Source of the DNA: Clostridiaceae bacterium
Lineage (GTDB): Bacteria; Bacillota; Clostridia; Saccharofermentanales; Saccharofermentanaceae
Assembly: GCA_012718915.1 (NCBI GenBank)
Contig: JAAYBI010000029.1
Coordinates: 1-35,519 of the forward strand
Direction: 5' to 3'
Length of the DNA stretch: 35,519 nt
Shown here: one piece after another, positions 29,691 through 33,666 of the stretch
Layout: the number at the start of each line of letters is the position of its first letter
How positions within the stretch are numbered: position 1 is the first letter of the stretch
Notes under the pieces: generated by a model
Seen by the model: only the letters and a program-made list of their open reading frames with translations
The model's database searches: none
What the model was told of the DNA's origin: nothing
Made by a program: the position numbers and the translations under genes

Positions 29691-29922
29691 GTTGCGTTGA
29701 CCACAAATTCCGTTTAAATGATGCAATGGAAACAGCAAATAAAATTTTTAAGCGGAAGTTCCTCCATATATTTTTCGGTGTCAATGGTCTCTCTAAGAAA
29801 AGAGAGGATATCGATACAGCACAGAGTTAGTGTAAAGTTTATCTCGGTCAAAATATAAAAGAAAAACCCCCGATGTGGTAGAATTCGAATCACTTCACTA
29901 GAATGTAACGGAGGACCCATAT

Positions 29923-31041
29923 ATGCAAATCGGTTGTACGAAAAATCTTTGCCAACAGCTTAAAGTGATCCCGCAAGCCTTTAGAGATAAGGTGCCATTG
30001 TATGCGTGGCACGCCAATATTTTTACGCTTCATAGGAAAAAAGCCGTTCTTCTCGCCCATGATGCGTCGCGGTTTCCGATTCTTTTGTTCGGCCTCAAAG
30101 CCTCTCATTGGAAACAAATCGACAGCATCATCGAGAAAGCGATCTTGCGCGCGCTTGAGAACGAAGGCATCCGACCGGAAGTCATCCAAGCCTTTATGCG
30201 GGACGCCGGGGAGGTTGTTTTCACAAAGACAAATGACCGGTCGGTTCTGTCTGCGATGAATCAGATGATACAAGGCATCAAGTACTCAGAGAATAAGGAG
30301 ATGAATTCGGAGGACATTTTTCAGGAGGAAGTATGCCACTATATGGGCGAGTGGATATTTCGGCATGACGGTGTATATCGTAGCCCTAGAGAAGTGCTTC
30401 GGGAGGTACTGACCGAAAAGTATGGCGTCGGTCCGGACGGAAGCCCGCGATCCATTTATTCTGTGGTCGCTTTTCAATTCATGATGAAGCTGGAGCTGGA
30501 TAAGCATAAAGTGTGGCGAAGAGTCATTGTTCCGGCGAACATTAACTTCCGTCGACTTCATTTCGTGATACAGGATGCCTTTGGCTGGCGAAGCTATCAC
30601 TTGTATCGATTTGATTTTTTTGAAAAGGGCAAAATCGTCGCTTCGGTTTGCCTGGATCCATATTCGGATTTTCTGTTCGAAAATGAAAATGCTCCGAGCG
30701 AAGCGGATGATCAAGTTATGGTCACCCGGTATTTCCCGAAATTTCGGGAATGTACCTATGAATATGATTTCGGCGATGGATGGATCCACAAGCTCAAAAT
30801 CGAAAAGATTATCGAAGACTATGAGGACGTCCGCCCGGTATGCATCGGAGGCGAAGGCGATTGTCCGCCGGAGGACGTTGGAGGCGAAAGCGGATACGAT
30901 GATTTTCTTGAGGCCATTCGGAATCCCAAGCATCCGGAGCATCGGGAAATGACGGCTTGGGGAATCTATCAGCGGTACGAGCCGTTTGATCTATCTAAAA
31001 CGAATAGAAAGCTCGCTCGTTCTTTATACCGAATAGACTGA
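29923..31041 (+). CDS. DUF6933-like / pRiA4b ORF-3-like fusion protein
   Basis: A 372-residue protein with two parts. Residues 1-120 (MQIGCTKNLCQQLKVIP, YAWHANIFTLHRKKAVLLAHD) resemble the DUF6933 family. Residues about 185-345 (AFQFMMKLELDKHKVWRRVI, FHVIQDAFGWRSYHLYRFDF-like, YEYDFGDGWIHKLKIEKI, CIGGEGDCPPEDVGG) match the plasmid pRiA4b ORF-3-like family, often seen in mobile or defence contexts. The biochemical function of both domains is unknown. GGAGG precedes the ATG by about 8 nt. It is monocistronic, with a CTCTC/GAGAG hairpin (about 29790-29808) in the region upstream. No transposase is present, so the family name should not be taken as evidence of a mobile element. Confidence 0.8.
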   Translation: MQIGCTKNLCQQLKVIPQAFRDKVPLYAWHANIFTLHRKKAVLLAHDASRFPILLFGLKASHWKQIDSIIEKAILRALENEGIRPEVIQAFMRDAGEVVFTKTNDRSVLSAMNQMIQGIKYSENKEMNSEDIFQEEVCHYMGEWIFRHDGVYRSPREVLREVLTEKYGVGPDGSPRSIYSVVAFQFMMKLELDKHKVWRRVIVPANINFRRLHFVIQDAFGWRSYHLYRFDFFEKGKIVASVCLDPYSDFLFENENAPSEADDQVMVTRYFPKFRECTYEYDFGDGWIHKLKIEKIIEDYEDVRPVCIGGEGDCPPEDVGGESGYDDFLEAIRNPKHPEHREMTAWGIYQRYEPFDLSKTNRKLARSLYRID

Positions 31042-31077
31042 GCGTGGGGTGGGACCGGGAAAAAGTTGCGTTTTGAC

Positions 31078-31172
31078 GCGAGCACGAGAAGATTCCTTAT
31101 TAAAGGTTTCTTTAATAAGGCGCTCTCAAGCAACTCCTTATTAAAGAAAAGTGCCAAAAACTTTAATAAGGG
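31078..31172. repeat. 95-bp direct repeat, copy 1 (upstream of fic)
   Basis: From GCGAGCACGAG to CTTTAATAAGGG this block recurs at 32508-32602 with one base different (31124 T, 32554 C). It contains two palindromes: CCTTATTAAAG/CTTTAATAAGG with a 4-bp centre (31095-31120) and the same arms with a 14-bp centre (31136-31171). Confidence 0.95.
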
Positions 31173-31222
31173 CGGTCATTCGCATGCCTTGTTTAAAAAA
31201 ATACCATAAAATTTTAATAAGG
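31095..31222. repeat. Palindromic iteron array in the fic promoter region
   Basis: CTTTAATAAGG arms occur at 31110, 31161 and, as TTTTAATAAGG, at 31212, exactly 51 bp apart each time. Left arms CCTTATTAAAG are at 31095 and 31136, and a decayed one (CCTTGTTTAAA) is at 31187. The third palindrome overlaps a candidate promoter TTGTTT (31189-31194)-N18-TTTAAT (31213-31218) for the Fic gene. This suggests operator sites, perhaps for the winged-helix part of the Fic protein itself. Confidence 0.65.
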
Positions 31223-31241
31223 GACGCGTTCAAGGGAGGAA

Positions 31242-32396
31242 ATGGCTATGACTCATAATCGTGCCGGTAAATATGTTCATCAGCTAACGGGCTATGATGC
31301 ATTCATTCCAACGGATCTTCCGCCGGATCCTCCAGTGAATATGGATGCAGAAATGATTCGCCTTCTATCCTTGGCGGATCGAAAATTGGGACGGCTTGAT
31401 GGAGTCACACAGATTTTGCCAAATCCAGATCTGTTCGTTGGAATGTATGTGCAAAAGGAAGCGGTATTGAGCTCGCAAATTGAAGGGACGCAGGCTTCAT
31501 TTGTTGACGTTCTTCAGGTTGATGCGGATACGGCTGCGAAGAGGCAGGATGTTGAAGAAGTTGTAAACTATGTTAAGGCAATGAAATACGGGATGAATAG
31601 ACTTGAGACGCTACCCTTAAGTCTTCGTCTGCTGAGAGAAATACACGGTATTTTGTTGAGCGGGGTGAGAGGAAGCCAGCGAAATCCAGGCGATTTTCGA
31701 ACATCCCAGAACAGGATAGGCTCTTCGGGATGTAGCCTAGCAACGGCATCATTTGTTCCGCCGCAGGTTGCTGAAATGACATCTGCACTGGGGCATCTTG
31801 AAAATTATATGTATTCAGAAAGTGATATTCCGCATCTTATTCGAATTGCACTGATTCATGCTCAATTTGAAACGATTCACCCCTTTTTGGATGGAAATGG
31901 AAGAATGGGAAGGTTGCTGATTGCTTTTTGGCTATATCAACAACAAATTCTAAAATATCCCCTCCTATATATCAGCTACTATTTTAAAAAGAACCGGACA
32001 GAATACTACGATCGATTGATGAATATTCGCACGAAAGGAGATTGGGAAGGCTGGGTGAAGTTTTTTCTGGAAGGTGTGGCACAAGTTGCAGATGAAGCAA
32101 CTCAATCGGCAAGTGAAATCATGAAATTGAAGGAAATGATTATGGAAAAGATTCAAAAAGAAACGAGCGGGAAAGCCAACTCGGTGTTACTGCTTGACCT
32201 CCTTTTTCGAATGCCTATAATTACTATAAATTTAGTTAAGGATGAGCTGAAGGTTTCCTATCCTACGGCGAAAGCTCTTACGGAGCATTTTCGTGAAGCG
32301 AAAATCATTCGTTGTATCGATGATTCCATTCTGCGAAACAAGAGGTACATCTTTTCTGAATATGTAACGATACTTGAGAGAGGCACAGAAATCTAA
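31242..32396 (+). CDS. Fic family protein (class II) with winged-helix C-terminus
   Basis: Predicted AMP-transferase (AMPylator) or related nucleotidyl-modifying enzyme. The catalytic motif HPFLDGNGRMGR starts at His213 and is intact. The inhibitory-helix motif S-x3-E-G (SSQIEG, Ser77 to Gly82) lies N-terminal to the Fic core, which defines class II Fic proteins with built-in autoinhibition. The last about 70 residues (LLDLLFRMPIITINLVKDEL, SYPTAKALTEHFREAKII) look like a winged helix that could bind DNA. GGGAGG suits a start at the third codon (31248) as well as 31242. The gene sits between two 95-bp direct repeats with an iteron array over its promoter. No antitoxin gene is adjacent. Confidence 0.9.
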   Translation: MAMTHNRAGKYVHQLTGYDAFIPTDLPPDPPVNMDAEMIRLLSLADRKLGRLDGVTQILPNPDLFVGMYVQKEAVLSSQIEGTQASFVDVLQVDADTAAKRQDVEEVVNYVKAMKYGMNRLETLPLSLRLLREIHGILLSGVRGSQRNPGDFRTSQNRIGSSGCSLATASFVPPQVAEMTSALGHLENYMYSESDIPHLIRIALIHAQFETIHPFLDGNGRMGRLLIAFWLYQQQILKYPLLYISYYFKKNRTEYYDRLMNIRTKGDWEGWVKFFLEGVAQVADEATQSASEIMKLKEMIMEKIQKETSGKANSVLLLDLLFRMPIITINLVKDELKVSYPTAKALTEHFREAKIIRCIDDSILRNKRYIFSEYVTILERGTEI

Positions 32397-32507
32397 CCTA
32401 AGTATCGGAAACCTGTCGGCCCACCGTCTCTCCCACGCGAGCACGAAGAAATCCCCCCCGACATGTGCGCCACTCTCGTTATATTCGGTCAACAACGTAT
32501 CTCCCAA

Positions 32508-32602
32508 GCGAGCACGAGAAGATTCCTTATTAAAGGTTTCTTTAATAAGGCGCCCTCAAGCAACTCCTTATTAAAGAAAAGTGCCAAAAACTTTAATAAG
32601 GG
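32508..32602. repeat. 95-bp direct repeat, copy 2 (downstream of fic)
   Basis: 94 of 95 bases match copy 1, at an offset of 1430 bp. It carries both palindromes (arms at 32525, 32540, 32566, 32591) but lacks the third, degenerate iteron and the promoter. A partial copy of its first 15 bases (GCGAGCACGA-GAA) also occurs near 32437, preceded by the same CTCCCA. Confidence 0.95.
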
Positions 32603-32616
32603 AGGCCGAGTCGCCG

Positions 32617-33666
32617 AATTTCCTTAGCGATTATTTCCATACGAATGATTTCTTAAGCGTGAAAGAGATTACTCCGTCTATTCGAAAATCTGAAGTTTGG
32701 ATTCAAGAATAATTCAATGGCGCAGCCGGCTTGACGAAGCTCCATCGCACACTTAATCTTGCCACAGTTGAAGACGATACCGGAATAGCACTCTCTCTCG
32801 AAAACTTCCTATATCATTTCCATCTGGATGTCAGAAACGTATTGTCGAGAGGGCCCTTTTCGCAATTATGTATTGCGGCGGCTGTTCGAGAAGACTATGA
32901 AGAGCCTCTGGAAGAATACGTTTCGAAGGCCCTGCCGCGTCTATGTGCCATCGATTCGAGAAACTGGATTATGTAATTGATTGACACTCTCCAGCGAATG
33001 GATGAAGTCGATGTCAACCGCCTGTCCGAAAAAGAGATCCGGATGCTCCAGATGTTCCATTATTCAGTCTGGCTGCATGCAGAAGAAGATAACGGGAGAG
33101 ACACACTATATATGAAGCTTATGCAAATCAAAAACTCACCTGTGCTATTAGCCGACATCATTGACGAGCCGGTCAACATCGGGTTCGATTGCCCGCTTGA
33201 CTTGCACTGCACCTACACAAGAGACAAAATCCTCGTCGCTATGAACTACATGAAGCCCTCAACCATAAGAGAAGGCGTCAAATATTTGCCCGAAAAGAAA
33301 ATCGATCTCTTCTTCATCACGCTCAACAAATCCGACAAAGACTATTCGCCGACCACACTATATAACGACTATTCCATCAATGAAACGCTCTTCCACTGGC
33401 AGAGCCAAAGCACAACTTCTGAAGCCTCGACGACCGGCAAGTGATACTGCCACCACAAAGTGTCCGCGAACAAAGTCCTCCTGTTCGCGCGTGAATCCAA
33501 GACGGATATTGGTGGAACATCACCATATACATACTTGGGATTTGCCGATTATGTGACGCGCGAGGACAGCCGTCCGATGAACATCACATGGAAGCTGCAC
33601 CGCCCGATTCCTGCAAAGTACTTGAAGAAGACGAATAAGTTGGTGGGACGAGGTTGTATGGAATAG
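32617..33666 (+). pseudogene. Decayed C-terminal part of a DUF3427-type protein
   Basis: One reading frame runs through this stretch but is broken by three in-frame stops: TAA at 32710, TAA at 32974 and TGA at 33442. Text between them is recognisable: LSLENFLYHFHLDVRNVLSR, then KKIDLFFITLNKSDKDYSPT, INETLFHWQSQSTTSEASTTG, and after the last stop SPYTYLGFADYVTREDSRPM and NITWKLHRPIPAKYLKKTNK. These match the DUF3427 domain found at the C-terminus of DEAD/DEAH-box helicases. The helicase part is missing; the left end abuts repeat copy 2. The stop at 33442 falls where the family usually has Arg (TGQRY), consistent with CGA to TGA. The first segment (32617-32709) is in frame but I cannot place it in the family. 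Confidence 0.8.

What the first reader, a model, noticed from the sequence alone, without database searches (positions are those of the whole stretch)
31078..32602. Fic gene bracketed by 95-bp direct repeats made of palindromic iterons
The two repeats differ at one base in 95 and enclose the whole fic gene with a 1430-bp period. Inside are perfect 11-bp arms CCTTATTAAAG/CTTTAATAAGG, with right arms spaced 51 bp apart and a degenerate third site over the promoter. Recombination between the copies would delete fic exactly. The Fic protein ends in a predicted winged helix, a natural candidate to bind these sites and repress itself. This could be an autoregulated toxin-like cassette, or the result of a recent duplication in which a second fic was lost.
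Basis: partly seen in the sequence, partly recalled or inferred. Interest (0 to 1): 0.78.

Follow-up and report, generated by a model that had tools for sequence, protein, structure and literature searches.

The report
Self-repressing Fic gene with phased operators
The repeats around this bacterial defence-type toxin gene (fic) are a string of evenly phased binding sites, probably for the Fic protein itself, and the same layout sits in front of related fic genes in many bacteria, so a whole toxin family probably switches itself off this way; the extra copy behind the gene looks like a leftover duplication.

Summary
Two 98-bp direct repeats (31078-31175, 32508-32605; two mismatches) bracket a class II, SoFic-type fic gene. 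All eight exact copies of the 11-mer CTTTAATAAGG in the 2.2-Mb genome lie in them. The upstream copy is the distal part of a six-half-site operator array that runs into the fic promoter. The array is not local: exact 8-mers repeated 50-52 bp apart occur upstream of 38 of 73 orthologs in the phylum, against 25 of 1387 control windows. Half-sites alternate in orientation with spacings of 27 and 24 bp; other lineages use a 41-bp period, about one helical turn shorter. Half-site sequence differs by clade and tracks the recognition helix of the Fic C-terminal HTH; residue 341 has the highest mutual information with operator class of 375 columns. Best explanation: Fic represses its own promoter through cooperative binding, as shown experimentally for one distant Fic, CccR. 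Binding was not tested here. The downstream copy was seen only in this lineage and abuts a truncated helicase pseudogene; a duplication relic is most likely. Looping and excision are possible but unsupported; no empty site was found.

The parts
31242..32396 (+). fic gene, 384 aa: Fic_N + Fic domain, class II inhibitory motif SSQIEG, active site HPFLDGNGRMGR, C-terminal HTH (recognition helix near SYPTAKAL, residues 339-346)
   Evidence: Pfam Fic_N 4.6e-29 and Fic 2.6e-19; PADLOC SoFic 1.3e-120; PDB SoFic 9tch/3eqx aligned to residues 45-379; weak Pfam HTH_13 hit on the C-terminus, below cutoff
31078..31175 (+). upstream copy of the 98-bp direct repeat: the distal four half-sites of the operator array
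31095..31120. distal close-packed dyad CCTTATTAAAG-N4-CTTTAATAAGG (half-site starts 15 bp apart; 14 bp in the 8-bp core frame)
   Evidence: the same 14-bp pair in L083, L107, L108, L109 and in L159, L160
31136..31171 (.). middle dyad CCTTATTAAAG-N14-CTTTAATAAGG
31187..31222 (.). promoter-proximal, degenerate dyad CCTTGTTTAAA-N14-TTTTAATAAGG, over the likely promoter and upstream of the start codon
   Evidence: position matches the -10-spanning dyad of orthologs
32508..32605 (+). downstream copy of the 98-bp repeat: the same four half-sites without the promoter-proximal dyad
32701..33645 (+). remnant of the C-terminal third of a DUF3427 helicase, broken by stop codons, downstream of the second repeat
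   Evidence: 47.6% identity to residues 729-1053 of an intact helicase in G008; Pfam DUF3427
29923..31041 (+). upstream neighbour, DUF6933 + PRiA4_ORF3 protein, part of the tract 99% identical to G001

Best explanation
The sequence upstream of fic is an autoregulatory operator. Dimers of the Fic protein bind through their C-terminal winged helix to alternately oriented half-sites (TTTAATAAGG) spaced 27 and 24 bp apart (51-bp period). The promoter-proximal dyad overlaps the likely promoter, so bound Fic blocks transcription of fic. The distal dyads raise local occupancy through cooperative contacts between neighbouring dimers, which would explain the fixed helical phase. Shown here by comparison: the array, its geometry, its conservation and its covariation with the recognition helix. 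Inferred: binding, repression and cooperativity, from the experimentally characterised Fic protein CccR. The downstream copy most likely is a relic of a local duplication of the operator segment (perhaps with a second fic that was later lost), now next to a decayed helicase gene.
For: Half-sites (exact 11-mer) occur only at this locus in the genome. In 73 orthologs (30-60% identity) exact 8-mer direct repeats sit at 51 bp in 24 loci, 52 bp in 13 and 50 bp in 6, against 0.4-0.5 per bin in shuffles. A 50-52 bp repeat is present in 38/73 upstream regions against 25/1387 flanking control windows and 8/364 windows inside fic. Half-site geometry: plus-to-minus spacing 27 bp in 51 of 68 pairs (28 in 10), minus-to-plus 24 bp in 27 of 50 (25 in 9, 23 in 5, 14 in 6). 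Independent set of 44 loci from viral contigs: 51 bp in 8 and 41 bp in 11, against 0.19 per bin in shuffles, with spacings 27/24 or 25/16. Half-site tracks recognition helix: residue 341 is N in 29/29 GAAATAA loci, S in 5/5 CAAAATAA, P in 5/5 TTTAATAA; it ranks first of 375 columns for mutual information, 0 of 20,000 permutations as high. At Fic-domain identity 55-80%, recognition helices are more alike when operators match (0.57-0.68 against 0.30-0.46). The paralogous SoFic-type gene of the same genome (L042) has a different half-site, CATGGGTA. Precedent: CccR, a class II Fic with C-terminal HTH, represses its own promoter by binding AGATAATCAT-N26-ATGATAATCT (PMC9755527).
Against: No binding, footprint or expression data for this protein. 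Operator classes were assigned partly by eye and the permutation test does not correct for shared ancestry; below 55% Fic-domain identity the pairwise comparison shows no clear excess. L085 and L096 carry N at the recognition position but a different half-site (GAAAACTC), so one residue does not set specificity alone. A clear array was not seen in every ortholog (for example L024, L102, L104, L113). The fic -35 element in the window is poor and the promoter scan did not list a fic promoter. No reliable structure model was obtained.
Confidence: 0.82

Rival explanations
1. The array is read by another DNA-binding protein, and Fic is only a regulated gene.
For: Binding by Fic itself was not tested.
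Against: Half-sites change between clades together with the Fic recognition helix. The exact 11-mer occurs nowhere else in the genome. Two SoFic-type genes in one genome have different operators.
Confidence: 0.1
2. The 98-bp repeats are ends of a single-gene mobile cassette that moves or excises by recombination between them.
For: Locus-specific direct repeats also bracket fic in two distant genomes: L117 (85 bp, 92%) and L076 (69 bp, 97%), with unrelated sequences found only at those loci. The tract 30150-32318 is almost identical in G001, while the rest of the aligned contig is about 80% identical.
Against: No empty site, no recombinase next to the gene, no downstream copy in other orthologs of the same class. 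The tract shared with G001 includes the upstream gene and has gradual edges, as in homologous recombination, and does not end at the repeats. In L076 the repeat seems to be the 3' end of the upstream gene, a different situation.
Confidence: 0.12
3. The downstream copy is a functional second operator that forms a 1.4-kb repression loop with the upstream array.
For: All four half-sites in the copy are perfect; the two mismatches between copies lie outside them.
Against: No exact half-site core within 600 bp downstream in the seven other loci checked: L083, L107, L108, L109, L063, L159, L160. Too few mutations have accumulated to show selection.
Confidence: 0.2
4. The repeats act at RNA level (terminator, attenuator or riboregulator).
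For: Perfect inverted arms could form hairpins.
Against: In main-clade orthologs a -10-like box lies inside the promoter-proximal dyad, so the distal dyads lie upstream of the transcript. No Rfam match up to E 0.1. Spacing is conserved at DNA helical intervals.
Confidence: 0.03

Closest known systems
CccR of Yersinia pseudotuberculosis (PMC9755527)
   Same: Class II Fic with a C-terminal HTH that represses its own promoter by binding widely spaced inverted half-sites near the -35/-10
   Different: One pair of 10-bp arms with N26 (36 bp start to start). Here a multi-site array with 27/24-bp alternation and another sequence; the protein is closer to SoFic; secretion by a T6SS is not implied.
SoFic / Sofic anti-phage Fic (PDB 3eqx, 9tch; PMC12249575)
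   Same: Same domain order; PADLOC SoFic model matches at 1.3e-120
   Different: The passages read of the Sofic paper describe autoinhibition and an antitoxin AS1, not an operator; identity is low and the NCBIfam SoFic equivalog cutoff is not reached.
AbiEi autoregulation at multiple inverted repeats (PMC7319586, abstract only)
   Same: A toxin-antitoxin promoter controlled through several inverted repeats
   Different: There the antitoxin binds DNA; here the Fic protein itself carries the HTH.
Phd-Doc (from memory)
   Same: Doc shares the Fic fold; the operon is autoregulated
   Different: Phd, not Doc, is the DNA-binding protein.

Membership tests
SoFic-type class II Fic | Fic motif HPFxDGNGRxGR and N-terminal inhibitory motif (S/T)xxxE(G/N) | tested here: met
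   HPFLDGNGRMGR and SSQIEG in the translation; the key residues are invariant in alignment A1
SoFic-type class II Fic | Match to the PADLOC SoFic model over the full length | tested here: met
   E 1.3e-120, residues 17-380
SoFic proper (NCBIfam NF046030 equivalog) | Curated cutoff of 550 bits | tested here: not met
   166 bits: a relative, not an equivalog
SoFic anti-phage system | Protects against phage by AMPylation | not testable with these tools
   needs an experiment
CccR-type autoregulated Fic | C-terminal HTH in the same chain | tested here: met
   alignment to SoFic structures through the C-terminus; HTH_13 hit below cutoff
CccR-type autoregulated Fic | Inverted half-sites in its own promoter region | tested here: met
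CccR-type autoregulated Fic | Direct binding and repression | not testable with these tools
   supported indirectly by covariation
Excisable cassette | Empty site with one repeat in relatives | tested here: inconclusive
   none seen; G001 assembly stops at the boundary of the downstream repeat

The most novel reading that the evidence does not exclude
The nearly equidistant, alternating, helically phased sites let Fic dimers assemble as a continuous oligomer on DNA. Assembly both silences the promoter and holds the enzyme in an inactive state, so a phage-induced loss of DNA binding would release active AMPylase and new synthesis together.
Probability: 0.12. Interest if true: 0.85.

Novelty: new variant of a known kind. 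Interest (0 to 1): 0.62.

Why it matters
Autoregulation by a Fic protein was found, in the papers searched, for one protein only (CccR). A conserved, phased operator array across SoFic-type fic genes suggests that the toxin-like enzyme itself is the repressor in a large defence-linked family, without a separate DNA-binding antitoxin. The helix-to-half-site correspondence gives a readable specificity code, and the 51/41-bp spacing makes cooperativity directly testable.

Tried and rejected
Exact dyad search in viral contigs: none. Empty-site search with the downstream region in 39 relatives: only remnants and unrelated contexts. AlphaFold2 on the single sequence: unusable, pLDDT 34.5. That was my oversight; the tool accepted the job, but I did not collect or use it. 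RNA-family reading rejected. Downstream half-site clusters as a general feature rejected. Repeats of L117 and L076 as the same element as here rejected: unrelated sequences. Literature searches for other autoregulated Fic proteins gave only CccR.

Full report
Observation. The two repeats are 98 bp long (31078-31175 and 32508-32605), 98% identical, 1430 bp apart, and bracket the fic gene 31242-32396. It is the only direct repeat of 40 bp or more found in the window. CTTTAATAAGG occurs 8 times in the genome, all here, with about 1.4 expected.

What the upstream copy is. It is the distal part of an array of six half-sites in alternating orientation: 31095(-), 31110(+), 31136(-), 31161(+), 31187(-, degenerate), 31212(+). 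The last pair lies over the likely promoter, about 20-55 bp before the start codon. Same-orientation plus sites are 51 bp apart.

The protein. Fic_N + Fic domains, SoFic model in PADLOC, aligned to SoFic crystal structures over residues 45-379. It has the class II inhibitory motif and a complete Fic motif. The NCBIfam SoFic equivalog cutoff is not met, so it is a relative of SoFic. The C-terminal HTH is supported by homology and a sub-threshold HTH_13 hit.

Conservation of the array. Upstream regions of 73 orthologs from the phylum were compared with shuffles and with downstream DNA. Exact 8-mers repeated at 51 bp occur in 24 loci, 52 bp in 13, 50 bp in 6, against 0.4-0.5 per bin in shuffles and at most 1 downstream. 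A 50-52 bp repeat is present upstream in 38/73 loci, in 25/1387 other flanking windows and 8/364 windows inside fic. Scanning with the half-site of each class gives spacings of 27 bp (plus to minus) and 24 bp (minus to plus), with a 14-bp variant of the latter in the clade of the window. An independent set of 44 deduplicated loci from viral contigs shows 51-bp and 41-bp periods, with spacings 27/24 or 25/16; one further group there has 19/23. Periods that differ by 10 bp, about one helical turn, suggest contacts between proteins on one face of the DNA; this step is inference. Plasmid-borne relatives in cyanobacteria, proteobacteria and other groups carry similar half-sites on inspection, not all equally clear.

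Link to the protein. Half-site sequence differs between clades: TTTAATAA, GAAATAA, CAAAATAA, AGTAAAAT and others. Residue 341 in the recognition helix separates the classes best of 375 columns; none of 20,000 permutations reached the observed value. Caveats: classes were assigned partly by eye, ancestry is not corrected for, and L085/L096 show that this residue alone is not sufficient. The pairwise comparison at matched Fic-domain identity points the same way for 55-80% identity; at lower identity no such excess is seen.

Mechanism. CccR, a class II Fic with HTH, represses its own promoter by binding inverted 10-bp arms with a 26-bp spacer (PMC9755527). The present array fits the same principle with more sites. 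I give 0.82 that Fic represses fic through this array. Cooperativity is likely but less certain.

Downstream copy. It repeats the four distal half-sites and stops before the promoter-proximal dyad. About 95 bp further on lies the broken C-terminal third of a DUF3427 helicase gene. Other loci of the same operator class have no such copy. In G001, a relative with about 80% nucleotide identity over most of the aligned contig, the tract 30150-32318 differs at only a handful of positions and both edges diverge, which fits recent homologous exchange. Its contig stops at the boundary of the downstream copy, so presence there is unknown. Duplication with later loss fits best; looping and excision remain possible.

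Conduct note. One structure job contained proteins from loci outside the sources the tool names. It was an oversight; the result was not collected and nothing here rests on it.

Noticed in passing
window 29903-32446 vs G001:C2 (L062): Tract of about 2.2 kb nearly identical between two species that are about 80% identical over most of the aligned contig: recent exchange of DUF6933/PRiA4 gene, operator and fic.
   Followed up: partly
L117 (G897:C8) and L076 (G178:C4): fic genes also bracketed by locus-specific direct repeats (85 bp with a third partial copy; 69 bp), unrelated in sequence to those here.
   Followed up: partly
L120 (G833:C134): A 30-bp tRNA 3'-end-like sequence occurs on both sides of a fic gene, possible attachment sites; three tRNA genes lie nearby.
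   Followed up: no
L042 (G000:C55:6419-7351): Second SoFic-type gene in the same genome with a different half-site, CATGGGTA.
   Followed up: partly
window 31713 (fic codon 158): The window reads R where G001 and the aligned relatives mostly have W in a conserved QNWIG stretch; effect unknown.
   Followed up: no
window 29923-31041: DUF6933 + PRiA4_ORF3 fusion, also matching a PADLOC candidate model (PDC-S63).
   Followed up: no
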